Shown here one piece after another: positions 4,540-55,141 of a stretch of DNA of 64,000 nt. Source of the DNA: Boswellia sacra (Eukaryota > Streptophyta > Magnoliopsida > Sapindales > Burseraceae); contig SNVD02001278.1 in assembly GCA_013180625.2 (NCBI GenBank), forward strand, positions 1 through 64,000. Reading direction: 5' to 3'. Positions within the stretch are counted from its first letter, which is position 1, and every line of letters begins with the position of its first letter. The notes below the pieces were generated by a model. That model searched no databases. It saw nothing but the letters and a program-made list of their open reading frames with translations, and had not been told where the DNA came from. A program made the translations under genes and the position numbers.

Positions 4540-5886
4540 TGACACATCCGAAAAGGATTGTCTCCCAAGTATAGGAGTGTCGAAGTAATAAACCCGATGA
4601 GACCAGGGTCGATCCACGAGGAAGGAGATTTTAGCGCTACAAATTATAAGCTAAGCAAATATGATATGAATGATTTGAAGATATGCCAAGATAATATCAA
4701 CAATAGATGAGAATAATTAAAATGCACAAGTAAAAGAAATTAACACAATAATAATGAAAGCCAAGGTTAGGGGATCCGCCCTTGATATTTCAAATAAGGA
4801 TAAACAACCCGTTTTAGTTATATGAATTATATTTGATGCGTTACCAATATTTATACCACTATTTGTAAATCAAGCATCCAATGTGCCAATCACCATATGT
4901 CTACAACAAATCAAGGTTCCTAACTAGATTCATGTTGGTAATGAAGAACCATACGACATCTAGAAACGATCCAAGCATTTGATATGCTAAGGATTGCCTA
5001 CAATGGATCAAGACCTCCACTTTACAAGTGGTGTCAAGATTGATTAAGAAAATAAAATAAATCATATAAAATAAACAACATACTATTATGATTATTAAGC
5101 ACATACCAAAGGGTAGAAAATCCTTACTCTCATATCAAGGGTTTCACCCTTTCACTTTAGCAAGAGAGAAATTAGAAAGACATTATAAAAGAAAGAAAAC
5201 AAATTGTAAGAAAAAGAAGATTTATTAATAGCATAAAAACACAAGAGAGAAACACAATACAAGATCCCAGCAAGGCCACGATGCCCTAATGGATCACAAG
5301 GCACCTCTATTTATAGATACATTTTGGGGCAAACTTGTCAATTTACAAAGGAATAATTGTCAAATATTAGATGCACCAACTTTGATAATTGGGCTAATTA
5401 GGTGAACCGACTTTGACCACTGATTTTGACATTGAAGTATTGAGAATTTTAATCACATGTCTTCATGAAAGTCGTAGATATTTCTCTCAGATTTCTAGAA
5501 CATCTTGATTTATATGATTTGGATAAATATCGTGAGAGATATGATCAAAATACTGAGGCATGGTCAGGCTAGGCTGAAACTGCTGATGGGTTCACTTCAA
5601 GCCCATTTTTGGTCTATTAAGAGCCCGAATTTGATGATGCTTGTGAAATACAATCTTGTAGATAATTTAATCAGCTTTCCAAAACATTAAGATTTGTACC
5701 ATTCTAATCTATAAATAGAAAGTTATGCCCAATTTATGGAACCTACATCAAAACCAAAATTAAGAGAAAGTTAATTCAAAAGATGTAAAGACTACAAATC
5801 TGCTTAAATTGAGGAATTTAATGACACTATTAATGCAATATGATGAATTAAGCTCTTATTAAGCATACATGTTTAAGTGTTCATCA
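4540..5886 (-). repeat. 3' LTR of Athila-1
   Basis: On the plus strand it starts TGACACATCC and ends GTGTTCATCA; it is nearly identical to the pieces at 25818-27122 and 33921-33969 and related to 55142-56669. On the sense (minus) strand the ends are TG...CA as expected. It holds a CTATTTATAG motif (about 5310-5320) that reads as a TATA-like box on the minus strand. Short ORFs inside it look spurious. Confidence 0.9.
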
Positions 5887-5897
5887 CACCCCCCAAC
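5887..5897 (-). other. Polypurine tract of Athila-1
   Basis: The minus strand reads TTGGGGGGTG directly before the LTR start TGATGAACAC, the usual place for the plus-strand primer. The same tract is kept in Athila-2 at 46625-46635. Confidence 0.75.
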
Positions 5898-6176
5898 CAA
5901 CTTATTGCTAGTCCCTAGCAATTAAAGCGTTATTATTTAGAAGTGATTTATATAATTTTACATCCAAGGTGTTCATTATTGCACTCTCCTTGATTTTATC
6001 CAAATAAACAAACTCTCAACCGATTTTTTTTAATGACTCATGTACCCTTCAGTCAACATATTAATAAACCTTCTTTTTGTGCTCAGTCGACACATGACTA
6101 TGGGGCTTATTAGAAAGAAGCCATATCGGTTCTAATATTTGTTAAGGCTAACAACTTTAGGTATGGGGCATTCATT

Positions 6177-6208
<32 letters not shown>

Positions 6209-6860
6209 GTTTTTTTTTGAACGAATGCATCTTTAACCCATGTAGCGAGCCTTAGGCTAATGACTCCCAGACCAATTGGCGTTAGGGCATTAGGTGTTAA
6301 GACACCCCTTCGAGCTTAACGACTCGGGTTGCCGATGCTTTATTTTTGCTTAGAAACTTGTGGGTAGTGCAATGTTCAATCGCATTAAGCTTTCTCCTTA
6401 ATCCATGTAGCGAGCTTTGAGCCAATAGCTCTCAAACCAGTTGGTCTTAGGGTATTAGGTGTTAAGACACCCCTCGGGCTTAATTGCTCGAATTAAGGAG
6501 GCTACGAAACCAAACTTATCAACAATTGCTTTCTCTTCTTCTCTTCTTTTATTTTCACTTTTATTTTGCCTTTATTTTGCTTTTTTTTTTTTACTTTCCC
6601 TTTCCTTTTGTGTTATCCTAAACAAAACAAAAGAACTCAAATATTACAACATTTCATTTCGCCATCCACAATCATGCATCAAGGTATGTGTGTATGTGAA
6701 GAAAGGTTCATGAATACTTGCTTAACGAGTTCATAAGCACACAGTTCATCAACATTTTATTTTTAGCATTTTATTTTATAAGTCCTCAATGTTTAAATGT
6801 AGAGAGATAAAGTATAGTAGACATTACTTGAAGCTTCTATTATTCAAGATAAGAAAAAAA
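5898..6860 (-). other. Athila-1 3' non-coding region with a repeated, hairpin-prone segment
   Basis: No gene here. A (TA)n run lies at about 6178-6208. Two related segments of about 90 bp (6236-6325 and 6405-6495) share the phrases TGTAGCGAGC, GGTGTTAAGACACC and CTTAA-GCTCG-like ends. GGTGTTAAGACACC is a perfect 5-bp stem with a TAAG loop, so each segment could fold in the RNA. Both segments and their spacing are kept in Athila-2 (about 46995-47090 and 47160-47255). A pyrimidine-rich low-complexity tract follows at 6520-6605. Confidence 0.65.
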
Positions 6861-7511
6861 TTACAAACGGAGATTCAGATTCAGTTTACACCTTTTATTT
6901 TGCCCTCCTGACCAATTAATTTGAGTACTAGCTAGGTCAGGTTTATACTCAACTGCTTGTAATTTGTCAAGTAACTCACCAGCAGAAGTGGTAGAAACAA
7001 GGAACTGTCTCGCCGAATGAGGGATAAAATTTTGTTCCACGGCTGCATCAACAAAACTTATTAAAGGATCAAAGAAATTTTTGACATTCAACAAACCTAT
7101 AGGTTTTTTATGGAGATTCAGTTGGGCCCAAGAGGCAATTTGAAAAATTTCTTCAAGAGTACCAAAGCCACCTGGTAAAGCAATAAAGGCATCTGAATTG
7201 ATGAGCATATGTGCCATGCGTTCATGCATAGAGGAGACTTGTAACTCATTCCCAACCGTTTTTCCAACAATGCTTTCTATAGCCAAAGCTTTAGGAATAA
7301 CTCCTAAAACTTGACTACTTCCTACATGTGCAGCTGTTGACACACAACCCATTAACCCGAGGCTACCTCCCCCATAAATCACATGAATCTTTCTTTCAGC
7401 CAGTAGCCTACCAAGATAATTTGCTGCTTCTACAAACTCCTTACTTTTGCCCGGTCGAGATCCACAGAATACACATATCCTTTGGATTCGACGTTTTGAA
7501 GTTCCCTCCAT
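6861..7511 (-). CDS. LOG-like: LOG-type cytokinin riboside 5'-monophosphate phosphoribohydrolase, captured by Athila-1
   Basis: A complete 216-codon ORF with an ATG at 7509-7511. LOG enzymes release ribose 5-phosphate from cytokinin nucleotides to give the active free base, mostly in cytosol and nucleus. Visible marks: ICVFCGS near residue 12, YGGGSLGLMG near residue 46, the MHERMAHM helix with its arginine near residue 96, and the PGGFGTLEE signature near residue 113, all typical of LOG; length is that of plant LOGs (about 210-230). Plant LOG genes known to me have several introns; this one has none, so it looks like a captured cDNA. It lies 3' of pol, on the pol strand, between CRP and the 3' LTR. 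The neighbouring pol is full of stops, yet this frame is open. Unknown: whether it is expressed or active. Confidence 0.9.
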   Translation of the reverse strand: MEGTSKRRIQRICVFCGSRPGKSKEFVEAANYLGRLLAERKIHVIYGGGSLGLMGCVSTAAHVGSSQVLGVIPKALAIESIVGKTVGNELQVSSMHERMAHMLINSDAFIALPGGFGTLEEIFQIASWAQLNLHKKPIGLLNVKNFFDPLISFVDAAVEQNFIPHSARQFLVSTTSAGELLDKLQAVEYKPDLASTQINWSGGQNKRCKLNLNLRL

Positions 7512-7829
7512 GTCTATGCAACTCTCTAACTATGTGTGAAAAAGAGAACAAAAAATGTGGTATTTATGGAGTGCAAAAAGGTATGCTAATGATGACATCC
7601 AAATAGGTAGCTCGGTTACTTTTTGAAAAATATGACAATAATGCATAGAAATTAAAAAAAAAACGATGAAATAAGACACCATAAGTCAAACAAAAGATAC
7701 AAATTCAAAAATGACAGCTATGAGGCATTAAAATAAAAAAATGATGGCACGCATGCATATGTATAGGTAGTTATGACTGTGGCTCACATCTTCCACTGGT
7801 TTTACGTCCAGAAACGGCTTAAACACCTT
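7512..7829 (-). other. Spacer between CRP and LOG in Athila-1
   Basis: About 320 bp without a gene. The same spacer is kept in Athila-2 (48633-48948). On the sense strand it is the 3' flank of CRP and the 5' leader of LOG. I see no clear promoter or splice signal. Confidence 0.5.
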
Positions 7830-8377
7830 CTATGAGTTGGGGATATGCTTCCCATCCAGTTTTCTTATAAACTGGCAAACATGGTCGTTTTGAGTTAGAT
7901 TTCCAAGACTATAGCGTTCCTCCTCATCTCGGAATTGTGTCCACAATTTAAAAATTTCACGCTGCATAAGTCCACAAGAACGCGTCTCAAGAGTCATTCG
8001 GATATCATCCAAAGACTCCTTACTCAGTCCACTCTTGATGAATTGTAGTTTATCCTCTCGATTATTAGACAAATATCCCAAGGAGCGGCAACGCTGGTTA
8101 CAAGTCCATCTTGCACATTTGGGACAAACTTGTAACCTTTTCGCTCTTCGCTTTTTGGCGTAAGAGCTTTTCCCCATACCCGGCATGTGAGAAACAAGAT
8201 TATCTGAAAATTCATAAGAAAATCGAACCTTGGCTTCAATCAACTATCTTACTTCAACAGGCATACCCTTACGCATCAACATCCTTAGTCTTTTTGCGCA
8301 AGCTTTGTAAATTTTAAGCAAATCATTTGGAGGAAGAGAGGGAAAATGTTTGTGGAGATTTGAGAGAATGGTGTCAT
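7830..8377 (-). pseudogene. CRP: viral nucleic-acid-binding-protein-like gene of Athila-1 (broken)
   Basis: The frame encodes a basic, cysteine-rich protein of about 180 residues. The centre has a lysine/arginine block (AKKRRAKR) followed by C-x2-C and a further cysteine pattern (CPKCARWTCNQRC), then a conserved FIKSGL-type segment. This order (GxGxSxYA, basic block, cysteine finger, FI-x-G) matches the small cysteine-rich nucleic-acid-binding proteins of carla-, viti- and allexiviruses; some of those suppress RNA silencing. The copy is damaged: relative to Athila-2, one base is missing just after the start codon, and a tryptophan codon in the N-terminal third is TAG (near 8244). From there on the frame is open. 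It lies between pol and LOG on the same strand. Confidence 0.7.
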
Positions 8378-8494
8378 GTGAAAATACGAGAAAAGAAAAG
8401 AAAATGAATGCAAGGTGAGCAACAGTTTTTAGGGAACTGAAAAATCGACTTTAAAAGTCACGGACTACCGTATCCGCCACTTGACCGGGAAAAA

Positions 8495-8515
8495 TCAATC
8501 CTTAAAAAGGATTGA
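8495..8515 (-). other. 9-bp perfect hairpin across the pol stop codon
   Basis: TCAATCCTT, AAA, AAGGATTGA forms a perfect inverted repeat that includes the last pol codons and the TAA stop (8502-8504 on the plus strand). Athila-2 keeps it at 49618-49638 with one changed pair. It lies just before the CRP leader, so it could affect termination or access to the downstream gene; this is inference. Confidence 0.55.
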
Positions 8516-9706
8516 CTAAAGTAATGGACTCTTCATTTTGGTCAAAATTTTCAAAGAATGGTTTTAACTGTTGTCCATTAACTTTAAACACATTACCAAT
8601 CTTTGGGTTCTCAATTTCAACTGCTCCATAAGGGAAAACATTTTTAACAATGAAAGGCCCAGTCCAACGAGACCGAAGTTTACCAAGAAACAAGTGCAAT
8701 CTTGAATCATACAAAAGAACTTTTTGTGAAGGTTCAAAAGATTTTCTAACAATGTATTTTTCATGAAAAACCTTCATTTTTTCTTTGTAGATTTTAGAAT
8801 TTTCATAAGCCTCATTCCTGATTTCTTCAAGTTCACTCAATTGGAGTTTACGTAACTTGCAAGCATCATTCAAATTTGTGTTAAATGTTTTAATGTCCCA
8901 ATAAGCTTTATGCTCGATTTTTACAGGCAAGTGACAAGGTTTTCCATAAACTAATCTATAAGGAGACATTCCTAATGATGTTTTAAAAGCAGTTCAGTAA
9001 GCCTAAAGTGCATCATTAAGTATTAAGGACCAATCTTTACGATTTGGGTTAACCGTTTTTTCTAAGATCTATTTTATCTCCCTATTAGTCAATTCAACTT
9101 GTCCACTTGTTTGTGGGTGATAAGGTGCAGAAATTTTATGGGTTATTCCACAATTCTTCATTAGAGTTTCAAACGGTTTGTTACAAAAATATGTACCCCC
9201 ATCACTAATAATGGCTCGAGGAATTCCAAATCTATACAAGATATTCTCTTTCAAGAATTTGATAACTATTTTGTGATCATTGTTTCGACATGGAATTGCC
9301 TCAACCTATTTTGAAACATAGTCTACTACAACAAGAATGTACACAAAACCAAATGATGGTGGAAAAGGTCCCATAAAATCAATACCCTAACAGTCAAATA
9401 TTTCAACAACAAGAATGAGATTCAAAGGCATCATGTTTCTTTTTGAAATGGATCCCAATTTTTGACAATTTTCACACGTCTTGCAAAATGCATGTGCATT
9501 TTTAAATAAGATGGGCCAATAAAATCACATTGCAAGATTTTAGCAGTTGTTTTTCTAGATGAAAAATGTCCTCCACATGCTTCAGAACGACAAAAATTAA
9601 TAACACTACTTACCTCATTGTCGGGTATGCATCTTCTAATTATTTGATCCTGATAATATTTGAGCAGATATGGGTCATCCCAGTAAAAAATTTTCATCTC
9701 GGTCAA
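8502..9706 (-). pseudogene. Athila-1 integrase (broken)
   Basis: Three open segments (9431-9706, 9069-9254, 8502-8969) follow one another. They contain the histidine/cysteine zinc-binding region (EACGGHF...), core blocks IISDGGTYFCN and [16 protein letters not shown] with the final glutamate, and the C-terminal part [24 protein letters not shown], all characteristic of Athila and related plant gypsy integrases. Several in-frame stops separate them (for example near 9067, 8999 and in the core at about 9310). Non-functional. Confidence 0.9.
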
Positions 9707-11131
9707 AAACTTTCTTTTGTCTTGAGCATTCCAATGAAGTGGGCATTTTTCCTGTTGTAAGGAAATTTACAATTTTAGCAAACCAAGGTATAACAGCAAC
9801 AGAAAATAAAAATTCATCAGGAAAAAAGTCATTGATAGGTGAAGTTTCAATTAATGTCTCTGTCGTTAGTCTTGAAAGATGATCTGCAACGACATTTTCG
9901 GCTCCTTTCTTATGCTTTATTGTGATGTTGAATTCTTGGAGCAATAAGATCCACCGTATCAATCTAGGTTTTGCATATTGTTTAGTCATTAAATATCTCA
10001 CAGCTGCATGGTCAGTGTAAACAATCATGGGAGAACCAATTAAATAAATACAAATACTACTGCAAGTAGTTCTTTTTCAGTTGTTGTGTAATTCATTTGC
10101 GCATCATTTAAAGTCCTACTTGCATAGTATATCACATAAGGCTTACCTTCTTTTCTTTGTCCTAAGACAACACCAACGGCATAGTCACTTGCATCACACA
10201 TTAATTCAAAAGGCAAGGACCAATCAGGAGATTGCATAATTGGAGTAGTTGTTAAAAGTCTAATTAATTTATCAAAGGCATTTTGACATTCTTGAGTCCA
10301 TTCAAAAGAAGTGTCTTTTATTAAGAGGTTACAAAGAAGTTTAGATATAACACTGAAATTTCTTATGGACCTCCTATAAAATCCGGCATGCCCTAAGAAT
10401 GAACAAACCTCTTTAACTGTTTTTGGTGGAGGCAAATGGGAAATTAATTCCACTTTTGCTTTATCCACTTCAATTCCCTTAGAAGACACCACATGACGTA
10501 AGACAATTCCCGAAGTGACCATATAATGACATTTTTCCCAATTCAAAATAAGACCTTTTTCCTCACACCTTTTTAGGACTTTTTCTAAGTTTTCAAGACA
10601 ATTATCAAAAGAGTTTCCAAAGACAGTTAAATAATCCATGAAAACTTCTAAACAATGCTAAACCATGTCACTAAAAATGCTTAGCATGCATCTTTGAAAA
10701 GTAGCTGGAGCATTACAAAGTCCAAAAGGCATTCTTTTAAATGCAAAAGTACCAAAGGGGCACGTGAATGTGGTCTTTTCTTGGTCTCCAAGTGCAATGG
10801 GAATTTGATAGTAGCCTGCATATCCATCAAGAAAGCAGTAGTAGGAGTGCCCTGCTACTCTTTCTAGAATTTGGTTAAGGAATAGTAAGGGAAAGTGGTC
10901 TTTTCTAGTGATAGCATTTAATTTTCTATAATCAATGCACATACTCCAACTAGATGAGACTCGAGTTGGCAATGATTCCCCCTTTTCATTTTTAACTACT
11001 GTAATGCCAGATTTCTTAGGTACTACTTGTGTAGGGCTTACCCACTTGCTATTAGAAATAGGGTAGATAATTTCCACATCAAATAGTTTAAGAACTTCAG
11101 CCCTAATAACCTCTTTCATATGTGGATTCAA
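9675..11131 (-). pseudogene. Athila-1 reverse transcriptase and RNase H (broken)
   Basis: RT (10658-11131) shows VVPKKSG, WSMCIDYRKLNAITRKDHFPL and MPFGLCNAPATFQRCM. The catalytic YxDD-equivalent, FMDD in Athila-2, reads MDYLTVFG here (10040-10639): the second aspartate codon GAT has become TAT, which would abolish polymerisation. RNase H blocks follow ([21 protein letters not shown], then [10 protein letters not shown] and VVADHLSRL at 9675-10028). Stops near 10657 and 10029-10040 break the frame. Confidence 0.9.
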
Positions 11132-12424
11132 TCTTCTTTGAGGTTGTTGGGATGTTTTGGCATTTTCCTCTAAATGTATTCTATGTGTGCAAATTAAAGG
11201 GTTAATGCCTTTTATGTCTTATAAAGTCTATCCGATTGCATTTTTATGTCTTTTAAGCACTTCTATCAACTTACCTTGTTGCTCGCTTGTGAGGGATGAA
11301 GAAATTACCACCAGATATGTCTGATTCTCCCCAAGATATGCATATTTTAGTCCTTCAGGTAAGGGCTTCAATTCTAACTTGGGAGCTTCCTCTTCCTTGC
11401 TTTCATTCATTTGCCCCAATTCTTCAAATCTTGGTTTTGAGCCTTTTTCCATTACTTGTGCACAATCTAGTGAAGAACACATATCAGAAAGATTAGGTTC
11501 TAGTTCCATACTTGATTCTAATGAATTCACTAAATAAGTTTCCAAAGGGTCAGAAGAACTCCCTTTTTGGATATGATCTTCCACAATAGTTTCGATCATA
11601 TTGGTCTCCTCAATTTCATCTTCTTCTTCATGTGGTTGTTTGCACATATTAAAAACATTAAGTTCCAATGTCATGTTCCCAAATGATAGCTTCATGACTC
11701 CAATCCTGCAATTAATCAAAGCATTAGAGGTAGCTAGAAATGGACGCCCTAAAATGACAAGAATTGAATTACATACTTCCACTGGTTGTGTGTCCAAGAC
11801 GATAAAATCCACTGGATAAATGAATTTATCGACTTGAACTAACACATCTTTTACTATTCCTCTTGGTACTTTGATTGATCTATCAGCAAGCAAAAGAGTC
11901 ACAGAAGTCGGTTTTAACTCACCTAGATTGAGTTTCTAAAAAATCGAATATGGAAGCAAATTCACACTAGCACCAAGATCAAGTAAAGCTTGTTCAATTT
12001 TATGGTCTCTAATAACACATGAAATTGTAGGACAACCTGGATCCTTATATTTCACTGTATTATTGTTTTGAAGAATAGCACTTACTTGCTCGGCTAGAAA
12101 GATCTTCTTTTTCACATTTAATTTCCTTTTCACATTGCATAAGTCTTTCAAAAATTTTGTATAAGAAGGTACCTGTTTGATCACATCAAGCAAGGGAATG
12201 TTAACCTTTACCTGTTTAAAAATTTCAAAGATTTGAGAATTGTGAGTTGGCTTCTTTTGTGTAGCTAATGCTTGAGGAAATGAAGGCACAGATGAGGATT
12301 TGGTTTCTTCTTCGCTAGGTGTTGGTTTGACAACCTCTTCCTGCCTTTTAGAGATTGATTCTTCTTTTTTCTCACAAGGGTTAGGAATGTGTTTTTCAAC
12401 AACCTTACCATTGCGAAGGGTCAT
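11132..12424 (-). pseudogene. Athila-1 protease region and gag-pol linker (broken)
   Basis: The segment starts with MTLRNGKVVEKHIPNP, a conserved Athila landmark, and a charged Ser/Glu-rich linker. The aspartic protease follows with ALLDLGASVNLLPYS; DLG stands where DTG/DSG is usual. A stop immediately after LLPYSIF (about 11936) divides the domain. The second part (11228-11902) has ILGRPFLATSNALI, typical of the protease flap and C-terminal strand, and a Glu-rich linker to RT. Stops near 11225 also separate it from RT. Confidence 0.85.
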
Positions 12425-12654
12425 GACTAATTTGGCTTGGTCAAAATAATGGTTACTTGAACTCTCTGCATTTGAGTTAGATTGATCTTTGGGGTTTTGT
12501 AATGTTTAAGAAGGAAATTTCCCTTTCTCTTGGATGCTAAATGTAGATGCAAATTTTGCAAGAGTGTCTGACAAATTTGCTAATGTTTGAGCAGTTTGAC
12601 TATTGAAAGTCTCTTGCTTTATAATGAATGAATGCAATGTTTCTTCAAGGTCAT

Positions 12655-13546
12655 TCATAAGAATAGGAGCATATGCATGATCATGAGAATTTTGAAAATT
12701 TTGTCACGTTTGAAAAGGGACTTGTAAAGATTGTGCATGATTGTCATTTTTCCAACTAAAATTTGGATGATTTCTCCAACTGGGATTGTAGGTTGTGAGT
12801 ATGGATTGTGATTTGGCCTTTTGAAAGTGTTCAAGGCATTGGCTTGCTCATGGAGATATTCCCTAAAGGCAGGCAAAGTTGGACAATCATCAGTAGAATG
12901 GTCATTGTCATTACAAATGTTACAAATATTTTCTTGAATTGAATTCAATTGACCACTCTTTTTCATCTCTAAAGCCTCGACTTTTCTAGCTAGGGATGCA
13001 TATTTGGCTTGAAGGTCATGGTCTTCCCTAAGGTTGTAAATGTCTCTATTGGATGTCGAGGATGGGGCCTTGCTTGGTACCTCATAGGTGCCAGCAGTGT
13101 CCCAATTTTGTGCCTTTTCTGTCAAGGAATCTAGGTAGTCAATTGCTTCCTCAGGGTCTTTATCTCCAAATTCTCCATTACACATTAATTTCACTAGTTG
13201 CCTATCTTGAGGTGTTAACCTTTCATAGAAGTGTGCAACTATTCTCCAGGTTTCAAAACCATGGTTAGGATAGGTGTTAAGTAGTTCCTTATACATATCC
13301 TAACATTGGTAAAGGGTTTCCCCTTGTTTTTGAGAGAAATTGGAAATTTGTCTTTTAAGAGAATTTATTCTATGGGTAGGAAAAAATTTATTCAAAAATT
13401 GTTGTTTCATCTCATCCCATGAACTGATGGAATTCGACCTCAAATTTTGTAGCCATATTCTAGCTTTATCTTTTAAGAAAAAAGGAAAAAGCTTTAATCT
13501 AATGGTGTTTATGCTACAATTTAGGTCAGTGTAGGAGTTACATACC
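12655..13546 (-). pseudogene. Athila-1 gag, main part (broken, cut by CACTA-1)
   Basis: The capsid-like segment reads ETLYQCW...YKELLNTYPNHGFETW in two frames with a stop near 13297; then FYERLTPQDRQLVKLMCNGEFG and a glutamate-rich region. A CCHC knuckle (CNICNDNDHSTDDC, at about 12880-12930) follows. The frame ends in a frameshift near 12660. The 5' end continues on the far side of CACTA-1 at 25374-25614. Confidence 0.85.
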
Positions 13547-13549
13547 TTT

Positions 13550-14070
13550 CACTACAAGAAAAATGGGCTATGGCAACGCGCATTTCGTGTTGCTAAAGCG
13601 TTTTCGCAATGCGCAGACGCATGTTGCCGTTCTTGTTGCTGCGAAAAGTACTTCACTTTTAGCAACGCGCGTATGCATGTTGCGAAAAGTGATTTTGCAT
13701 GTTGCAAAAAATCTTTTGGCAACGCACATTGCGTGTTGCTAAAAGACGGAGTCAGCAACACACAATGCGTGTTGTTGTAGACATCAATTGCAACGTGCAT
13801 TGCGCGTTGCTGAAAGACAAAGAGTAATAGAGTTTCAGCAACATGCAATGCGTGTTGCCATAGACATCAATGGCAACGCGCAATGCGTGTTGTCGTAGAC
13901 ATCAATGGCAACGCGCAATGCGTGTTGCTATAGACCTCAATGGCAACGCATATTGCACGTTGCAAAAAAGATCCAAAATAATATAGTTTCAGCAACATGC
14001 AATGTGTGTTGCTATAGATTTAAGCATGTGAGTTTTAGCAACATGCGCATGTTGCCATTTGTTTGATATA
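13550..14070. repeat. Left subterminal repeats of CACTA-1
   Basis: About fifteen degenerate copies of a motif like GCAACGCGCATTGCGTGTTGC in both orientations, often spaced by TATAGACATCAATG. Such arrays serve as transposase binding regions in En/Spm elements. Open frames here are repeat artefacts. Confidence 0.8.
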
Positions 14071-14303
14071 GAAATATATTGTATTTATAATTAAATACCC
14101 TTTTTATTAATACGTAATACCTGCTCATTTTTAATTATACAAATTGGTATATAAATAATCACAGAATACATAATATATAATAAATGTAGAAATTTGTATT
14201 ATGTTAATATTATCACAAATATTATGAAAAATACGGGTACTTGTAATTAATATGTAATACAATCCTAAATGACTTAAGGAAAATGAAATAAAGTAAAACA
14301 TAC

Positions 14304-14690
14304 TTAAGCACAAATTCGTACATAAGCAGCAAAATCATCATCTTCTTTTAGCATCTTGATTGATGAACTTTCCTTAAAAGTGCCAACATAAAAGGCAATC
14401 CCCACCTAAAAATAAGGATAATAAAAATGCAGTTAACATCCTTAGAACATATTGTAAAAATTAAATAATATAAGCTTCCAAATACAAACTTATAGAAATT
14501 TAGTCAATGAGAAAGTATTACCTTTATGATATCAACTTGATGCAACATTTTTGCCAGGCAATAGCACTTCCTACGGCCTGATCGATGTTTTGAGCTTCGT
14601 CAGTTGATCTATACAGTTCAACATCATTCCTAATAGCATGAGTAACCCAAACTTTCCAACAGTCCCTTCCTAAAGGCTTGTGATGGTATT
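14304..14690 (-). pseudogene. CACTA-1 plant transposase (Transposase_24-like) exons, remnant
   Basis: Two exons can be read. The first (about 14522-14690) encodes GRDCWKVWVTHAIRNDVELY followed by STDEAQNIDQAVGSAIAWQK, and ends at a GT donor (14520-14521). The second (14304-14405) has an AG acceptor, encodes VGIAFYVGTFKESSSIKM and further residues, and ends in TAA. The wording recalls the Ptta/En/Spm plant transposase family (Transposase_24). One A seems to be missing after AWQK, shifting the frame near 14543. Upstream exons are not recognisable, so the gene is probably a remnant. Confidence 0.65.
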
Positions 14691-15806
14691 ATTAAACTTG
14701 CAAATAGGCCTCAAAGATTGAACTTAATTATAACCCAAGGAAAACTTCAAAATTATGCACTTGATCAAGAATTTTATCTCAAAGATTGGTTTCACTCCAC
14801 TTCAATTCCTCAAGTGCGTGTGTGTAGAGCCATTCTCACCTAATCACTTTTAACCCGGATGAGTTTTTTCATATTTAATAGTGAATATGTGCACATTGTC
14901 CTTAATGTTTAAGCAAGTGGAAGATAAGTATAGATTTTTTTTTCTTTTTTTTCTTAAACACAATATATCTCACTTTTATTGTTCATGACATAACCCAACT
15001 CCTTTAACTTCTCAAAACCATAACAAGGAAAAATGGTTAAAAAGGCTCAAAAGCATTACTAGGGACCAAATTCAATCAAGGTAGGTTATGAAATCTCAAA
15101 CGGTCCAAAGATGGCCTAAATCATTTTTCTAATGTTGCACAGTCTAGGACTTCGTCTCGACTGATCATCAAACAAGTTATAGAATTCATTGAAATATGGA
15201 GAAATACTTAAATTGCATAAACCTTCTCTAATTAAATAAATAACCCAGTGATAATGGCCCAATGCTCAATGCTATGCAAGGAATCAAAGGCAAAGCAAAA
15301 ACCAATTAATATTTCAAGCACATAGATCTATGCATCATTTATCATTTTTCAAGAGTTATTCTCAATTCAATCATTGCCTTATCATCGGCCCACAAAATGA
15401 AAAAAAAAACGAAGTACGTGACGTTGTTAGACTTGAGTCAAGATTGTATATTTCAACAATCCTTAGGACCAGTAGCAACTAAGGTCTGCCATTCTAAAGT
15501 CTTTCCACAATTTTTTTTTTGAATCAGACCTGATAGAAACAAAAAACACATAACAACTCTAAATTACATAAAATTAAACTTACTCATAAAGTAACAAAGT
15601 CCAACAGTCAGTAAACAAAAACAAGTTAGTTAGAATGAGTCTATAAAGTTTATAAGTTAGCCTCCTTATTCAGCCATTATGGATTGAAAAGATCCATAAT
15701 GCGTTTCAAGAGGACTTGAACTTAAAACAAACAAAATCAACAAACAATAACAACACAAAGATAGCAGTAATAATCAAATCAAACAAAACAAGAAAAATAA
15801 ATTTCA
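14691..15806 (-). other. Non-coding segment inside CACTA-1, like an Athila 3' region
   Basis: No gene. Phrases such as ACATTGTCCTTAATGTTTAA (14895-14915) and ATGCGTTTCAAGAGGACTTG (about 15698-15718) resemble the Athila-2 3' region (47850-47870 and 47710-47730). It lies 3' of the CRP gene in the same relative position, so this stretch is probably a fragment of a related retroelement inside CACTA-1. No LOG sequence is found between these phrases and CRP. Confidence 0.5.
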
Positions 15807-16361
15807 TCAATTTTTGAGGATTTGCTTCCCATCCAATTTTCTTATAAAGTGACAAATAGGGTCTTTTTTTGTCATATTTTCTAGACTATAATGCTGCAGT
15901 TCATCACGAAATTGTGTCCATAGATTAAGCAATTCACGTTGAACAAGTCCACAAGAATGTGATTCAAGAGTTAATAAAATATTATCTAGAGACTCATTAT
16001 TCAGACCATTCTTAATGAACAAAAGTTTATCTTCTCTATTCCTGGACACAAAACCTAATGATCTACAATTTTGGTTACAATTCCATCTAGCACATTTATA
16101 ACATACTTGTAACCTCTTTGCTCTTCGCCTCTTGGCGTAGTAGCTCTTTCCTAGACCAGGCATGTATTTAGTGAGATTAATATCAGGCTCACCAGACAAT
16201 CTTACCTTGGCTTCGATAAGCCACCGGATATCCGCAGGCATTTTTAGGAGCATCAACGTCCAGAGTCTAGTCATCCGTATTTTATAAATTTTGAACACAG
16301 CATTTTGAGGAAGTGAAGGGAAATATTTACGAAGGTTTGAAAGAAATATATCAACATCCAT
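15807..16361 (-). CDS. CRP: viral nucleic-acid-binding-protein-like gene within CACTA-1 (intact frame)
   Basis: An uninterrupted frame of about 184 codons from the ATG at 16359-16361 (MDVDIFLSNL), the start supported by alignment with Athila-2; an in-frame upstream ATG at 16418 would add 19 residues. The N-terminal third is hydrophobic/helical; then GLGKSYYAKRRRAKR, a cysteine finger (CYKCARWNCNQNC), FIKNGL and a C-terminal helical region. The positions broken in both Athila copies (the TGG and CGA codons) are normal here. Family resemblance is to the cysteine-rich RNA-virus proteins described for 7830-8377. It is on the minus strand, like the transposase exons. Whether it is transcribed is unknown. 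Confidence 0.65.
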   Translation of the reverse strand: MDVDIFLSNLRKYFPSLPQNAVFKIYKIRMTRLWTLMLLKMPADIRWLIEAKVRLSGEPDINLTKYMPGLGKSYYAKRRRAKRLQVCYKCARWNCNQNCRSLGFVSRNREDKLLFIKNGLNNESLDNILLTLESHSCGLVQRELLNLWTQFRDELQHYSLENMTKKDPICHFIRKLDGKQILKN

Positions 16362-16842
16362 TGAAGAGGAGAAAAGGAAAGATATTACCGATAATGCGTT
16401 TGAGTCCAAGATATGCACGCTTCAAACCTTCAGGCAATAGGGATGACTACAATATCAAATACAATCAATGAGCTCTTATTAATGTGTGTGTGTATGTATA
16501 CACTAATACTAATTAGATCATAAACTCCTTAAATTTAACATTAAACAATATGATGAATTCCATATTAATTTGCTACCTCAATTTATTTTCTTTAAATATT
16601 TTTAAAAAATTAAATTAATTCATGAAACAAAAGCTTAGAATAATCAAACACTTATATAAATAAATATTTTTAAAAATGAATAATGATCAAAATTCATTTC
16701 TATCACTTTTACAAAATTCATAAATCAACATGCAATAAAAGTGGTATAGTTAGAAAGAACTTGGAACAAGCTTTATTTGAGGTATAGATTGTAAGGAAAA
16801 AAAATAAATATGCATCATAAACTCCATTAAGAAGGCAATATT
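16362..16842. other. Unassigned AT-rich segment of CACTA-1
   Basis: No gene or clear signal. The phrase CATAAACTCCATTAAGAAGGCAA at its right edge recurs beyond the gypsy insertion (22814-22838 and about 22957-22980), so it is an imperfect local repeat of the CACTA-1 interior. Confidence 0.5.
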
Positions 16843-17642
16843 TGATACCGGGCTGCTGGATTATAATAGATCAGGATAGGATCTTCAAGTTGATTATCAA
16901 CTCAACCAATGGCTGGAACAAATAAAATGGAACCTAACAAACACTCTTTGAAAGGGATAACAAGCTCACCACCAAAGTAAACACCAATGGGATACAGATA
17001 ATTCACCACCCAAGGATGTAAACCAAGGATACAGGGCTTAAACTAACTCACCACTCTATGGAATCCACCAAGAGATACAGAGTTAAGGAGAAATCAGTAT
17101 AAACACTGAAATTTCACTCAAATTCGAATTCAAAACTTCACCCTTGAACACACAACTTTGGGACTTTAAATAACTTGGAACAACCCTCCAAGCATAGGTA
17201 AAAGACAATAATTAGATGTGTTCAACAATTACGGCTCAACTAATACATTGACAACTCAATTATTGACTAAGACTCATAAGTAAACACATTAGGTAATAAA
17301 AGCACAACCAACTAAGCTAGAAATTCAAATTCCAACCAACTAAGCAAAAATTCAAATTCTAGAGTGGACTTTAATGCAGCATTCATCATGAACCAGCTGT
17401 GAAGAGATAGTCATAGATTCCTGCAGAACAACTCCAAATGACACATTGACAAATGTGTTAGAAAGCTGACTTCAAGATCTTTTATAGCCACAAATCTTGA
17501 CATTTAATTCTCTGCACAGCAATACCAGTTCTTTTACGAAATTATCCCTCATTCTGGTTCATGTGCACTCCTGACCATTGTAACAATTTGCACCCTTTGA
17601 TGATCTATCATGAATCCCATGGATTGCAACACTCCTGTGTCA
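16843..17642 (-). repeat. 3' LTR of the gypsy element in CACTA-1
   Basis: Plus-strand ends are TGATACCGGG and CTGTGTCA; 800 bp. It contains the last codons of the integrase frame, which runs across the LTR edge to 17549. Confidence 0.9.
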
Positions 17643-18768
17643 AGCTCCTCTGGTTGAGAAAGACTCGACCTCGAGTCTTGATTGTTGTTTTCACCAAGAT
17701 AAGGACTAAGGTCAGAGATATTAAATGTGTTAGAAACACCATAATGCTCAGGTAGCTCAATTTTGTAAGCATTCTCTCCAATGCGTTGTAAAACTTTGAA
17801 TGGTCCATCAGCTCTAGGCTTCAACTTGGCATATTTGCCTGGAGGAAACCTTTCTTTTCTAAGGTGTATCCACACTAGATCTCCTTCTTTGAACTCAGCA
17901 TACTTCCGATATTTGTTTGCTGCAGCTTTATATTTCTCATTTTGCTTCAAAATCTTCTCTCGAACTTGTTCATGTAGTTTCTTGATGTTCTTAGCTCTCT
18001 CCTCTGCATCACTGCTAAATTGAGTTTTGGAAGGAATAGGAGCTAAATCCAAAGGACTTATTGGATTCTTGCCATAAACAACCTCAAAAGGACTATGACC
18101 AGTGGTTTGACTTGATGATCTATTGTAAGCAAACTCAACTTGAGGTAAAACAAGATCCCATTGCCGTAAATTCTTACCAACATAACTCCTCAGAAGATTT
18201 CCCAAGCTTCTGTTGATAACTTCAGTTTGTCCATCTGTTTGAGGATGATGAGATGAACTAAAGTTAAGTGTAGTCCCCAGCTTTCTCCAAAGCGTACGCC
18301 AAAAATGAGATAAGAACTTTGGGTTATGATATGAGACTATGGCCTTAGGAATGCCATGCAATTTCACAATCTCCTTGAAGTACAAATCGGCCACGTGAGT
18401 CGCATCATTTGTCTTGTTACAGGGGACAAAATGAGCCATTTTAGAAAATCGGTCAACCACCACCATGATTGAATCTTTGTTTCGCTGTGTTCTAGGCAAT
18501 CCCACCACAAAATCCAAGCTAACATCTTCCCATGGATCATTAGGAACAGGTAATGGAGTGTACAAACCAGTGTTCTGCCCATGACTTTTTCCACGTGACA
18601 AATTGTACACCTCTTCACGTGCTTCATCACATCCCTTTCCATCTTCGGCCAATAGAAGTTTTCCTTCACAATAGCAATAGTTTTGTCTCTCCCAAAATGA
18701 CCGCTAATGCCACTGCCATGTGCTTCATTAATGATTAATTCTCTCAAGGAACATTGAGGAATACACAA
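17549..18768 (-). pseudogene. Integrase of the gypsy element (frameshifted)
   Basis: The zinc-binding region (HGSGISGHFGRDKT...CTICHVEK) is in one frame (18364-18768); near 18600 the reading moves to another frame that holds the rest (17549-18652). That frame has DFVVGLPRTQ, HHPQTDGQTEVINR with the catalytic glutamate, FEVVYGKNP, and the C-terminal SNTFNISDLSPY. In the second catalytic block the usual SDRD-like sequence reads VSYHNPKF, so an essential aspartate is lost. No chromodomain follows; the tail enters the LTR. Confidence 0.9.
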
Positions 18769-21306
18769 TTAGTTTGCCTTGAGTAGATAACCATCCTGCA
18801 AAACAAATTGGTTAGATGAAAACTCATTACAGTTACTCCATATTTTGCCGAAATCTGGATCATCCTTGTAAAGCTCTTTTAAAACCTCAAACCCAAGAAC
18901 ATTCACTTGCATAGAGGTCAGCAAAGAATGTCTTCGGCTTAAGGCATCAGCCACCACATTTTGAACTCCAGATTTATGCTTGATGGTAAAGTTGAAAGCT
19001 TGAAGAAACTCTACCCATCTAGCATGTCGAACATTAAGCTTCTGTTGGCTGTTGATGAACTTCAAAGCTTCATGGTCAGAATATAGAACAAACAGTTTTG
19101 GCAAGAGATACTGACTCCAATGCTTCAACGCTCGACAAATAGCATACAACTCTTTGTCATAAGTTGAGTACTTTTTGCGAGATGCATTCAATTTTTCACT
19201 AAAGAAAGCAATTGGTCTGCGTTCTTGGCTAATAACAGCACCAATACCAATATTGGAAGCATCACATTCAACTTCAAAAACCTTGTTGAAATCTGGAAAT
19301 GATAAGATAGGAGCTTCTGTCATCTTCTTTTTAATCAGCTCAAAGCTTCTTTGTGCATCTTTCGTCCAAGTAAAACCATTACCTTTTAAGCATTCAGTGA
19401 TTGGAGCCATTATAGTACTAAATCCTCCGATAAATCGACGATAAAATGAAGCTAACCCTTGAAAACTTCGAATGTTGTGGACTGATGTAGGAATCGGCCA
19501 ATTCTGAATTGCTTCAATCTTGCTAGGGTCCATCTGAATTCCATCTTTTGAAACCACATACCCCAAGAAAATGAGGCTTTTGGTGAAGAACTCACACTTC
19601 TTCAAGTTGGCATAAAGCTTTTCACTTCTCAAGGTGTGAAAAACTTGCTGAAGATGATCCAAGTGATGCTCCTTATCTTTGCTGTACACAAGTATATCAT
19701 CAAAATCTACAACAACAAACTTGCCAATGAATGGTTTAAAGACATGGTTCATCAACCGCATAAATGTACTTGGTGCATTAGATAGGCCAAATGGCATCAC
19801 CATCCATTCATAAAGGCTATTCTTTGTTTTAAATGCAGTCTTCCATTCATCACCAGGTCTCATACGAATTTGATGATAGCCACTTCGAAGATCAATTTTT
19901 GAGAAGACAGTAGCACCGTGAAGTTGATCAAGAAGGTCGTCAAGCCTCAGAATAGGAAATCTGTAATTAATTGTGATCTTGTTAACAGCCCTACTATCAA
20001 TGCACATTCTCCAAGAGCCATCCTTTTTAGGCACCAAAAGAGCTGGGACAGCACAAGGACTCATGCTTTCCCTCACTAACCCTTTAGTGATAAGCTCATC
20101 AACCTGCCGTTGTAATTCTTCGTGTTCTGTGGGACTCATTCGATAGGCTGATTTATTTGGTAACACAGCACCTGGAACAAGATCAATGCAATGCTGTATG
20201 TCTCTCATTGGAGGAAGGCCTGGTAGTATCTCATCTGGTACAACATCATGGTATTCTTCAAGAAGATACTTCATCTCCAAAGGCGGTTTGTTACTAACTT
20301 CATTTTCTTCTAACAACAAGAACACATAAATTTCACTTCCCCTCTCCAACTCTCTTCTACATTCTGTTTGGGTAAGCAAAGCATTTCCCTCCCCTTTAGT
20401 AGGTTTAGGAACACCTTCTAACTTTGAAGGACCCAAAATAACTTTGATCCCATCTTTAAAGAATGTATAAGTATTCCTATAGCCATCATGCATTACTCTC
20501 CTATCATACTGCCATGGTCTACCAAGAAGTAAATGACAAGCATCCATAGGAACGACATCACACCATATTTCATCTTTATACTTTTTCCCAATAGAAAATG
20601 AAACAAGGCAGCGTTTGTTTACCTGGATCTCGTTATCTTTCCGTAGCCATGAAATCTTGTAAGGTTGAGGATGCTTCTCTGTTTGAAGGCCAAGTTTATC
20701 AATCATCTCCGTAGACACCACATTTTCAAAGTTGCCACCATCAATAATAACATTGCACACCTTACCATGAGAAGTACATCTGGTATGGAAGATATTTTTA
20801 CGAAGCCAATCATCTTCTCGTCCTTGGGCAATATTCAAACTCCTTTGAATAATAAAGAGATAATCACCTTGATCTGCATAAGTGACTTCCTCTTCATCAG
20901 CAAATTCTGGATTACTGAAATTGATCAGGGCATCTGTCTCTATCTCTTCATCACTTTCTTCCTCTACTAGTGTTACAATTTTACGATTAGGACACTCGGA
21001 AGCAATATGTCCATAGCCTTGGCATTTGAAACAGCGACGGGAAGTAGCATTTGAAGAGCTTTGGGCTTGTTTGGAACTATTACCTTGCTCATTCTTTGAA
21101 AAAGCTTTTGGCTTTGTTTTCAGACCTGTTTTAGGCTTAGGATAAGGACTACTGCCACGATTGGGAGTGCCATCGCCATTAGCAAAACGAGAGTTGCGAA
21201 CGTGTGCCTCTTTAAGCTGTTTCTCCACTCTAAGAGCAAGCCTACACACATTATTGTAGGACCAGTAGGGTTGCAATTGGACCATATTGCAGATTTCAGA
21301 TCTCAA
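18769..21306 (-). pseudogene. Gag zinc knuckle, protease, RT and RNase H of the gypsy element
   Basis: One 845-codon frame contains CCHC knuckle [14 protein letters not shown] (near residue 92), protease region ([13 protein letters not shown]), RT ([28 protein letters not shown]) and RNase H ([23 protein letters not shown]). The polymerase motif reads [11 protein letters not shown]: both aspartates of the DD pair are kept but the tyrosine of YxDD has become aspartate, so activity is doubtful. Stops at each end (about 21328 towards gag, and after LLKAN at 18769 towards integrase) look like nonsense changes in a once continuous polyprotein. Confidence 0.92.
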
Positions 21307-21330
21307 TCCCCTAAGAAAACGTGCTATGGT

Positions 21331-21982
21331 TTATTCTTTCGGTTCGGTCAGATCGCATTTCATCATCAAATTATCAAATTCTGCCACATACTCTTCCACA
21401 GATAACTCTTTTTGCCTGAAATTGTGAAACTTAAGGAAAACATCTTGCCTGTATTTTTCAGGCAGGAATTTCCTCTTAAGCTCTCTTTTCATTTTCTCCC
21501 ATGTCAAAATTCGACCTCTGCCCTCTCTTTCTCTTTGTTTCTTCAAATTCTCCCACCATAAAGAATCATACTTCTTTAGCTTGATTGCAGCAAGCTTGAC
21601 TTTACGAATTTCAGGCACATTTTTGTATTCAAAATTACGCTCAACCGTATTAAGCCAATCAATGAACTCATCAGGATGCATTCTTCCTTCAAATTCTGGA
21701 ATGTCAACCTTCACATCAAAATCTGGGAAGAAATGATTTCGTAATTCATGAGGAGGAGGTGGAGTGCTATCACTAGATTGTGAAACGGATTATCATCATC
21801 ATGGACTGCATTTTCCCATTCGTCACCATTTTCACCCCTATCTTCTTGATTTTTCATTACCTCCAAACGTTGCTGACTTGCTGGAGCTGCCGCCTGAGAT
21901 CTTCAATGATCAAATCTCGTTCGTCTCTTTGAGGAGGAGGCGGTTGGCTAGTAGAAGCAGCCTTGCGAGTGCGACCAGCCAT
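21331..21982 (-). pseudogene. Gag of the gypsy element (interrupted)
   Basis: It starts at ATG 21980-21982, just inside the primer site (MAGRTRKAAST...), with a Pro/Gln-rich leader. Stops and frame changes occur near 21840-21720. The retrotransposon gag domain is clear from 21714 (DIPEFEGRMHPDEFIDWL... LKRKFLPEKYRQDVF). The frame stops at TAA 21328-21330, where other elements have glutamine; the neighbouring ORF continues directly in the same frame. Confidence 0.85.
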
Positions 21983-21996
21983 TGAACCAAAAGCTC

Positions 21997-22800
21997 TGAT
22001 ACCGGGCTGCTGGATTATAATAGATCAGGATAGGATCATCAAGTTGATTATCAACTCAACCAATGGCTGGAACAAATAAAATGGAACCTAACAAACACTC
22101 TTTGAAAGGGATAACAAGCTCACCACCAAAGTAAACACCAATGGGATACAGATAATTCACCACCCAAGGATGTAAAACCAAGGATACAGGGCTTAAACTA
22201 ACTCACACTCTATGGAATCCACCAAGAGATACAGAGTTAAGGAGAAATCAGTATAAACACTGAAATTTCACTCAAATTCGAATTCAAAACTTCACTGCCT
22301 TGAACACACAACTTTAGGGACTTTAAATAACTTGGAACAACCCTCCAAGCATAGGTAAAAGACAATAATTAGATGTGTTCAACAATTACAGCTCAACTAA
22401 TACATTGACAACTCAGTTATTGACTAAGACTCATAAGTAAACACATTAGGTAATAAAAGCACAACCAACTAAGCTAGAAATTCAAATTCCAACCAACTAA
22501 GCAATCAAATTCAAATTCTAGAGTAGACTTTAATGCACCATTAACTATGAACCAGCTATGAAGAGATAGTCATAGATTCCTGCAGACAACTCCAAATGAC
22601 ACATTGACAAATGTGTTAGAAAGCTGACTTCAAGATCTTTTATAGCCACAAATCTTGACATTTAATTCTCTGCACAGCAATACCAGTTCTTTTACGAAAT
22701 TATCCCTCATTCTGGTTCATGTGCACTCCTGACCATTGTAACAATTTGCACCCCTTGATGATCTATCATGAATCCCATGGATTGCAACACTCCTATGTCA
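21997..22800 (-). repeat. 5' LTR of the gypsy element in CACTA-1
   Basis: 804 bp, nearly identical to 16843-17642. The tRNA-iMet primer site overlaps its inner edge (plus strand GCTCTGATACC at 21993-22003). Confidence 0.9.
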
Positions 22801-22805
22801 ATATT

Positions 22806-25135: not shown

Positions 25136-25373
25136 ATTTCGCAACATGCAGGATGAGCATGTTGCTAAATTTAGTAGTTTTGGCAACGTGCATTTTCTGC
25201 GCATTGCCGAATGATAATTTTCGCAACGTGCATTGCTTGCACGTTGCTAAAAGTGAAGTTTAGCAATCTTTCGCAACACACACAAATTACGCGTTGCGAA
25301 AAACAACATTTAGCAACGTGCATAAGCGCGCGTTGCGAAAACCCTGTTGTCATAGCCTTTTTTTCTTGTAGTG
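25136..25373. repeat. Right subterminal repeats and terminal inverted repeat of CACTA-1
   Basis: Inverse counterparts of the left-end motif (GCAACGTGCATT, CGCGTTGCGAAAA) followed by CATAGCC and the terminal TTCTTGTAGTG. Confidence 0.85.
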
Positions 25374-25614
25374 TTTTCAAAGAGTTTTAAGTGCGAATAT
25401 GGGTTCTCCATATCAAGGCCATGAAAGGTAGGTAGAAATCGAACAAAACTTGGTTTGAAATTGAAATTGATTGAATCGGGAGGAGAAATTACACATGATG
25501 GTGCACTAGTCCTTACCGGATTCATGTAGTCTCTGTTCTTGGTTGGTTTTGATCATTTTGTTGGGAACGGTTGTCCCCTTCATCCGTGAACCTTTCCACT
25601 AGATTTTCGACCAT
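25374..25614 (-). pseudogene. Athila-1 gag, 5' end (broken)
   Basis: The ATG at 25612-25614 begins a frame with FTDEGDNRSQQNDQNQ, shared with Athila-2. Compared with Athila-2, four bases are missing near 25530, which shifts the frame before MNPVRTSAPSC. The CACTA-1 insertion follows at HLKLFE. The rest of gag is at 12655-13546. Confidence 0.85.
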
Positions 25615-25793
25615 GTTTTCTAAGGAAGATGATGTTTTTCTAACAAGTCTACCACTAAATGTTCGTGACCAAATTTTCATGCAAGAAAGAGAGAAGAAAA
25701 GAGAAGAAAAGACGAACACACAAAAAAAGTAAAAAATTTAGATCTAAGATGAGAAACGAGAACACTTACAATTTTGCACGCCAATTTTTACCT

Positions 25794-25811
25794 TCCCCGG
25801 CAACGGTGCCA
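25794..25811 (-). other. tRNA-Asp primer binding site of Athila-1
   Basis: The minus strand reads TGGCACCGTTGCCGGGGA, which complements the 3' end of plant tRNA-Asp at 17 of 18 positions. It lies six bases inside the 5' LTR, as usual for Athila elements. Confidence 0.85.
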
Positions 25812-37900: not shown

Positions 37901-37935
37901 TGTTTAACTAAAGACACATAACATGCAAATCTTAC

Positions 37936-48632: not shown

Positions 48633-48948
48633 AGTCTATGTAAACTCTTAACTATGTGGGCAGAAAGGGAAAAGAGATGTGGGTATTTATGGAGTGCAAA
48701 AAGGTATGCTAATGATGATATCTATCTAGGTAGCTCGGTTGTTTGTTGAAAAATTTGACAATAACGCATAAAAATTCAAAAGATGATGAAATAGACACCA
48801 TAAGTCAAACAAAAGATACAAATTCAAAACTGACAGCTATGAGGTATTAAAATTCAAAAATGATGGCACGCATGCATATGTACAGGTAGTTGTAACTGTG
48901 GCTCACATCTTCCTCTGGTTTTACGTCCAAAAACGGCTTAAACACCTT

Positions 48949-49497: not shown

Positions 49498-49624
49498 GTG
49501 AAGAAAATGAGAGAGAAGAAAAGAAAATGGATGCAAGGTGAGCAACAGTTTTTAGGGAACTGAAAAACTGACTTTAAACGTCACGGAGTACCGTATCCGC
49601 CACTTGACCGGGAAAAATCAATCC

Positions 49625-54937: not shown

Positions 54938-55117
54938 GTTTTCTAAGGAAGATGATGTTTTTCTAACAAGTCTTACACTAGATGTTCATGACCAAATTTT
55001 CATGCAAGAAAGAGAGAAGAAAAGAGAGGAAAAGATGAACACTCAAAAAAATAAAAAATTTAGATCTAAGATGAGAAAAGAGAATACTTACAATTTTGCA
55101 CGCCAATTTTTTTACCT

Positions 55118-55135: not shown

Positions 55136-55141
55136 AAAACT

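What the first reader, a model, noticed from the sequence alone, without database searches (positions are those of the whole stretch)
7830..8377. Plant retrotransposon family carries a viral-type cysteine-rich nucleic-acid-binding protein
Seen: the same 180-residue gene, with a GxGxSxYA segment, basic block, cysteine finger and FI-x-G segment, sits between pol and LOG in Athila-1 and Athila-2, and a third copy is in CACTA-1. Established: this order of motifs marks the small cysteine-rich proteins of carla-, viti- and allexiviruses, several of which bind nucleic acid and suppress RNA silencing. Inference: an LTR retrotransposon lineage captured a plant RNA virus gene and spread it, possibly gaining protection from host small-RNA silencing. 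If confirmed, a rare case of virus-to-retrotransposon transfer.
Basis: partly seen in the sequence, partly recalled or inferred. Interest (0 to 1): 0.92.

Follow-up and report, generated by a model that had tools for sequence, protein, structure and literature searches.

The report
Virus-like gene riding plant jumping genes
Plant retrotransposons here and in several other plants carry, next to a gene for a hormone-activating enzyme, a small gene that resembles proteins by which some plant RNA viruses suppress RNA silencing; what it does, and which way it was transferred, remain to be shown.

Summary
The gene is on the minus strand. Copies at 7842-8375 and 48961-49503 lie between pol and a LOG gene in two Athila-like elements; each has one stop. 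A third, at 15807-16361 in a non-autonomous CACTA element, is intact (184 codons). Pfam places copy 3 and the open part of copy 1 in the flexivirus nucleic-acid-binding families above the curated cut-offs (copy 3: Viral_NABP 36.2 bits, cut-off 23). The signal sits mainly in a roughly 30-residue core, and structure prediction is too weak to confirm a fold. Homologues, most often 182 residues long, occur in nine named rosid and asterid genera, some in gene models joined to pol domains, to LOG, or to both (Diospyros). The window's own genome holds an abundant LTR family with NABP and LOG, from which the CACTA took its copy. Sequence change between lineages is constrained (omega about 0.15), but resident copies decay: 5 of 19 copies sampled without regard to NABP keep an uninterrupted frame of normal length. 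LOG in such elements is in print; my searches found no report of the viral-type gene. Silencing suppression and the direction of transfer are inference.

The parts
15807..16361 (-). NABP copy 3, intact frame of 184 codons, inside the CACTA element
   Evidence: uninterrupted; PF05515 36.2 bits, PF01623 24.2 bits
7842..8375 (-). NABP copy 1 in Athila-1, one internal stop, start codon out of register
   Evidence: 65% identical to copy 3; open part (7830-8243) scores PF01623 28.2 and PF05515 24.3 bits
48961..49503 (-). NABP copy 2 in Athila-2, one internal stop
   Evidence: 65% identical to copy 3, 88% to copy 1
6861..7511 (-). LOG gene of Athila-1, open, 216 codons
   Evidence: Lysine_decarbox 128.7 bits, TIGR00730 162 bits; nearest solved chain is Arabidopsis At2g37210
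48005..48634 (-). LOG copy of Athila-2, no stop inside, start codon lost
4540..27122 (-). Athila-1, Ty3-type LTR element split by the CACTA element; the 5' LTR is cut at its outer end
   Evidence: LTRs 94.6% identical, RT and RNase H frames
4540..5886 (-). 3' LTR of Athila-1; polypurine tract (as CACCCCCCAACC on +) at about 5887-5898
25794..25811 (-). Primer binding site of Athila-1 (TGGCACCGTTGCCGGGGA), tRNA-Asp type by recall
   Evidence: the same site type in L009 and L012
25818..27122 (-). 5' LTR of Athila-1, shorter than the 3' LTR
44847..56669 (-). Athila-2 with NABP and LOG; 5' LTR about 55142-56669, 3' LTR cut and with a tandem triplication
13550..25373 (.). CACTA-1, non-autonomous, carries NABP copy 3 and a nested Ty3-type element
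   Evidence: ends CACTACAAG/CTTGTAGTG, TTT duplication; two complete copies without the nested element elsewhere in the genome (L010, L011)
16843..22801 (-). Nested Ty3-type element in CACTA-1, LTRs 97.6% identical, ATATT duplication

Best explanation
A lineage of Athila-like LTR retrotransposons in eudicots carries two extra genes after pol: NABP, a basic cysteine-rich protein of about 182 residues related to the small cysteine-rich (NABP/CRP) proteins of carla-, allexi- and mandariviruses, and LOG, of the cytokinin-activating enzyme family. In this genome an abundant LTR family with gag-protease remains, NABP and LOG (no reverse transcriptase frame seen in the complete copy read) also carries the pair, and a CACTA transposon captured NABP with part of that family's 3' region, without LOG. 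Shown: anatomy, profile membership, linkage to pol and LOG in other plants, the CACTA capture, constraint between lineages. Inferred: NABP is a nucleic-acid-binding protein that weakens small-RNA control of the element or alters host transcription, as described for viral relatives, while LOG raises active cytokinin; together they would make cells, perhaps dividing ones, more permissive for transposition. The family and anatomy part I hold at about 0.85; the host-acting role at about 0.4.
For: Pfam scores above the curated cut-offs; 110 and 109 of 136 aligned proteins match PF05515 and PF01623 at E<=0.001. Gene models join NABP to integrase (Melia), RNase H (Populus), protease (Orobanche), LOG (many Orobanche, Citrus, Acer) and to integrase plus LOG (Diospyros). 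Own genome: 150 of 13624 first-look candidates scored, 146 of 150 without stops (chosen by NABP score); LTR family with NABP and LOG in 6 of 8 stretches read, complete CACTA copies in 2 of 8; CACTA carries the LTR family's NABP and 3' pieces. Copy 3 against copies 1 and 2: omega 0.15, bootstrap 0.05-0.27; in a sample not chosen by NABP, pN/pS 0.31 (7 copies). Of the first 22 viral structure matches 19 were named flexivirus proteins, 3 unnamed. Functions of viral relatives: passages of PMC12172455 and PMC3689765.
Against: With basic block and cysteine finger masked no Pfam match remains, so homology rests on a short core. Models are weak (pLDDT 64.0 and 71.8, pTM 0.32 and 0.38), and no viral structure match reached E 0.001. 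The cysteine spacing C-x2-C-x4-C-x3-C differs from C-x2-C-x9-C-x4-C given for potato virus H. Both Athila copies in the window are broken, and in 19 usable copies sampled independently of NABP only 5 have an uninterrupted frame of normal length, a sixth being open with 13 extra residues. Not all viral CRPs suppress silencing. No expression or activity data.
Confidence: 0.6

Rival explanations
1. Reverse or shared origin: the gene is an old plant gene (of retrotransposons or hosts), and flexiviruses captured it from plants; the viral proteins are trimmed descendants.
For: Plant NABPs are longer than many viral CRPs and conserved over the whole length, in rosids and asterids; the viral relatives listed are mostly 70-170 residues.
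Against: No NABP gene clearly outside transposons was identified here (not searched systematically); no rooted tree.
Confidence: 0.3
2. Convergence: a retrotransposon accessory protein with an NLS-like basic block followed by CxxC that happens to match the viral profiles.
For: Masking the core abolishes the match; masking the basic block leaves 12.9 bits for Viral_NABP and masking the finger 13.3 bits for Carla_C4, below the cut-offs; different spacing of the later cysteines.
Against: Two viral families and no other at E<=1 for copies 1 and 3; match spans residues 35-127 of copy 3; 110 of 136 relatives match; two structure searches rank flexivirus proteins first, though these also use sequence.
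Confidence: 0.15
3. Structural role: NABP is an extra nucleocapsid-like or nuclear-import helper for the element's own RNA or cDNA, not a host-acting factor.
For: Basic block and cysteine finger.
Against: The Athila-1 gag frame has its own CCHC knuckle; NABP lies after pol, the place of accessory frames; viral relatives with known effects act on host silencing or transcription.
Confidence: 0.25

Closest known systems
Small cysteine-rich / nucleic-acid-binding proteins of carla-, allexi- and mandariviruses (Pfam PF05515 Viral_NABP, PF01623 Carla_C4)
   Same: Profile match above cut-off; GxGxSxYA segment, basic block and CxxC in the same order
   Different: Encoded by LTR retrotransposons and a CACTA element; mostly 182 residues; later cysteines spaced differently; function untested
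LOG-carrying Athila-like elements of Citrus and Populus (Steinbauerova 2011 as cited in PMC9289625)
   Same: LOG (YgdH) domain in a Ty3-type element of plants
   Different: The adjacent viral-type NABP is not mentioned in the parts of PMC9289625 that I saw (passages and section 12)
Insect LINEs with RNA-virus helicase domains (PMC5563155, PMC4686597)
   Same: RNA-virus-type gene with reported silencing-suppressor activity fixed in a retrotransposon lineage
   Different: Non-LTR elements of insects and a helicase; here plant LTR elements and a cysteine-rich protein of untested activity
Non-autonomous CACTA transposons carrying captured gene pieces (recalled)
   Same: CACTA ends, 3-base duplications, no transposase frame, captured sequence
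   Different: The captured gene comes from another transposon

Membership tests
Viral_NABP / Carla_C4 (flexivirus CRP) | Curated profile cut-off reached | tested here: met
   copy 3 36.2 and 24.2 bits, copy 1 24.3 and 28.2 bits; cut-offs 23 and 20.9
Viral_NABP / Carla_C4 (flexivirus CRP) | Zinc-finger cysteine spacing as in carlaviruses (C-x2-C-x9-C-x4-C in potato virus H) | tested here: not met
   here C-x2-C-x4-C-x3-C; the first CxxC agrees. This spacing is that of one virus, not a Pfam criterion
Viral_NABP / Carla_C4 (flexivirus CRP) | Shared fold | tested here: inconclusive
   weak models, no match at E<=0.001, flexivirus proteins ranked first
Viral_NABP / Carla_C4 (flexivirus CRP) | Encoded near the 3' end of a flexivirus RNA genome, beside the coat protein | tested here: not met
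   it lies after pol in LTR elements; so it is a relative of viral genes, not a virus gene in place
Viral_NABP / Carla_C4 (flexivirus CRP) | Nucleic-acid binding or silencing suppression | not testable with these tools
   Needs the bench
Athila-like Ty3 retrotransposon | Ty3-type pol (RT, RNase H, integrase) | tested here: met
   RVT_1 and RNase H frames in Athila-1, integrase frame in Athila-2
Athila-like Ty3 retrotransposon | tRNA-Asp-type primer site and accessory frames after pol (recalled) | tested here: met
   for the site; for the frames; the tRNA itself was not compared
Athila-like Ty3 retrotransposon | RT placed in the Athila clade by a tree | not tested
   No reference RT set at hand
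LOG cytokinin phosphoribohydrolase | Family profile and PGGxGTxxE motif | tested here: met
   Lysine_decarbox, TIGR00730; PGGFGTLEE visible
LOG cytokinin phosphoribohydrolase | NCBI equivalog model for cytokinin LOG | tested here: not met
   NF058542 108.9 bits, cut-off 300 (a model made for bacterial and archaeal annotation)
CACTA transposon | CACTA ends and 3-base duplication | tested here: met
   3 of 3 copies examined
CACTA transposon | Transposase gene | tested here: not met
   the only ATG-started frame of 100 or more codons in L010 is NABP; non-autonomous

The most novel reading that the evidence does not exclude
The retrotransposon lineage is an old reservoir, possibly the source, of the flexivirus cysteine-rich protein: RNA viruses, LTR elements and a CACTA transposon share one counter-defence gene, and the LTR lineage keeps it paired with a cytokinin-activating enzyme as a two-gene kit that changes the state of the host cell.
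Probability: 0.25. Interest if true: 0.92.

Novelty: new variant of a known kind. Interest (0 to 1): 0.74.

Why it matters
If the protein acts like its viral relatives, one counter-silencing gene would be shared by plant RNA viruses, LTR retrotransposons and a DNA transposon, and its pairing with a cytokinin-activating enzyme would suggest that transposons change the state of host cells in order to spread. It also offers cellular relatives with which the unknown origin of flexivirus cysteine-rich proteins can be tested.

Tried and rejected
Near-universal intactness. The first genome search had 146 of 150 scored copies free of stops, and 16 copies chosen from NABP hits gave pN/pS 0.129; both were chosen by NABP protein score. 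A sample anchored on the protease region (20 fetched, ranks 2-23 of the 40 listed without two at contig ends; one of the 20 cut off by its contig) gave 5 of 19 copies uninterrupted at normal length, and a sixth open with 13 extra residues. So I dropped the claim that resident copies are maintained, and likewise the identity peak over NABP in four NABP-chosen copies. One search printed pN/pS 0.78 for that sample; this was my error (one copy with an insertion was compared out of register); the recount gives 0.31 for 7 copies and for the 5 intact ones. The LOG ratio (0.476) includes stretches out of frame and is not used.

Viral sequences for a tree: two scans of IMG/VR gave none, and no viral protein was among the rows shown by the three protein searches (one search showed 120 of 751). 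The direction of transfer is therefore untested. Asked for but did not complete: other flexivirus genes (coat protein family) in this genome, a LOG search of it, and a count of CACTA copies. Solved structures: one chance-level match. Splicing: a pyrimidine-rich stretch precedes the NABP start in all three window copies but without AG directly before it; left open.

Full report
What is there. The gene is on the minus strand. Three copies lie in the window: 7842-8375 in Athila-1 and 48961-49503 in Athila-2, each with one internal stop, and an intact 184-codon frame at 15807-16361. The first two lie between pol and a LOG gene (6861-7511, 48005-48634). Athila-1 has LTRs at 4540-5886 and 25818-27122 (94.6% identical), a primer site of tRNA-Asp type (recalled) and a polypurine tract; a CACTA element at 13550-25373 splits it, and this carries the intact copy and a nested Ty3-type element.

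Is it viral-type? Pfam gives copy 3 36.2 bits for Viral_NABP and 24.2 for Carla_C4, and the open part of copy 1 24.3 and 28.2, all above the curated cut-offs; no other family was listed at E<=1 for either. Of 136 aligned proteins (the window's copy 3 and 135 homologues) 110 and 109 match at E<=0.001; one of them also matches an unrelated viral coat domain. The limits: with the basic block masked Viral_NABP falls to 12.9 bits, with the finger masked only Carla_C4 remains at 13.3, with both masked nothing is found; three shuffles matched neither family. AlphaFold models were weak (pLDDT 64.0 with 28 sequences, 71.8 with 136; pTM 0.32 and 0.38). Against predicted viral structures no match reached E 0.001 (best 0.063 and 0.047). 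That score also uses sequence, TM-scores were low, and the assignment of the viruses to flexiviruses is partly recalled. I read this as probable homology with a short firm core.

Relatives elsewhere. One query gave 103 proteins, a profile 751 at E<=10 of which 120 were listed, and a search with part of an Orobanche model 45. Of the 210 proteins gathered, fragments and fused models included, 71 have exactly 182 residues. The named sources are Citrus, Melia, Acer, Xanthoceras, Populus, Rhamnella, Diplodiscus, Diospyros and Orobanche; most rows name no organism. Gene models join NABP to integrase (Melia), RNase H (Populus) and protease (Orobanche), to LOG (many Orobanche, Citrus, Acer), and in Diospyros to both integrase and LOG, there with NABP slightly below the cut-offs (20.2 and 19.5 bits). 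Some of these are machine-made gene models, so they show neighbourhood rather than real fusions. In a quick tree of 149 rows, rows of Populus, of Acer with Xanthoceras, of Citrus (two groups) and of Orobanche (two groups, one near Diospyros) lie together by host, with 79 of 146 inner branches open. This fits long residence in eudicot genomes; horizontal spread is not excluded.

The window's own genome (638.6 Mb, unnamed). The search with copy 3 had 13624 first-look candidates, which are not confirmed matches; the best 150 were scored, 146 of them without stops, most of them 90-92% identical to copy 3. Of eight 10-kb stretches read, two (L010, L011) hold complete CACTA copies of 5.9-6.0 kb without the nested element, and six belong to an LTR family with NABP and LOG. 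L012 is a complete member: LTRs 98.0% identical, primer site, polypurine tract, AGACT on both sides, protease-like frames, no reverse transcriptase among the frames listed (the frames were read by eye). CACTA carries the stretch of this family from just before NABP into its 3' region at 80-94% identity, without the LOG part. In 3 of 3 CACTA copies examined the flanking three bases are duplicated. So NABP reached the DNA transposon from the LTR family.

Selection. Copy 3 against copies 1 and 2 gives omega 0.15 (bootstrap 0.05-0.27, dS about 1.5); copies 1 and 2 give 0.32 (0.17-0.65); LOG 1 against 2 gives 0.51 with an interval reaching 1.04. LTR-family against CACTA copies gives pN/pS 0.17, the LTR copies being chosen by NABP score. 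In the sample found through the protease region, 5 of 19 usable copies have an uninterrupted NABP of normal length, a sixth is open with 13 extra residues, and pN/pS is 0.31 for the 7 copies that align without gaps. In 16 NABP-chosen copies LOG is free of stops and gaps over its whole length in 4, one of them the reference. The picture is a gene constrained while lineages replicate and decaying in resident copies.

Mechanism. Shown: a basic cysteine-rich protein of a viral nucleic-acid-binding family beside an enzyme family that activates cytokinin, in the accessory position of an element whose gag has its own zinc knuckle. Reported of relatives (passages of PMC12172455, PMC3689765 and PMC10335701): CRPs of several flexiviruses suppress RNA silencing, some do not, and that of chrysanthemum virus B acts as a transcription factor that causes overgrowth. 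Inferred: NABP eases silencing of the element or alters host transcription, and LOG favours proliferating cells. I give the host-acting role about two in five.

What is known. LOG (YgdH) in elements of Citrus and Populus is in print (PMC9289625, passages and section 12, which cites Steinbauerova 2011; that paper itself I did not see). Endogenous flexivirus replicase-like sequence is known in cucumber (PMC3136472, passages). Retrotransposons with a virus-type silencing-suppressor domain have a precedent in insect LINEs (PMC5563155, abstract and section 10; PMC4686597, listing only). Reviews and surveys of extra frames that I saw in passages (PMC7264820, PMC11728184) did not mention such a gene there. 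My ten paper searches turned up no report of a flexivirus-type NABP in a plant transposon; most subscription papers are not held, and supplements were out of reach, so it may be in one of those.

Noticed in passing
44847-45798: Three tandem copies of a 318-base unit (96% matches) within the 3' LTR region of Athila-2.
   Followed up: no
1349-3650 and 58673-62720: Related segments in opposite orientation, 83-94% identical, each with 65-base and 192-base tandem repeats inside.
   Followed up: no
42082-44849: A further piece of Athila-like internal sequence, 86-88% identical to Athila-1 and Athila-2, next to the LTR of Athila-2.
   Followed up: no
36396-41270: Frames that look like a copia-type element (gag-like, integrase-like and RNase-H-like) on the minus strand (read by eye).
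   Followed up: no
L009, L012, L014, L016, NABP part: NABP is 98-100% identical among these four LTR-family copies while flanks are mostly 85-97%, and all 30 differences over the six pairs are transitions. The copies were chosen by NABP score, so selection of hits may explain it; not resolved.
   Followed up: partly
P0171 and relatives (Orobanche): LOG parts of many Orobanche NABP-LOG models read PGGYDTLNE or PGGYGTLNE rather than PGGFGTLEE, so enzyme activity may be changed there.
   Followed up: no
P0179 (Orobanche gracilis): A gene model joins NABP to a copia-type gag, perhaps an insertion next to NABP.
   Followed up: no
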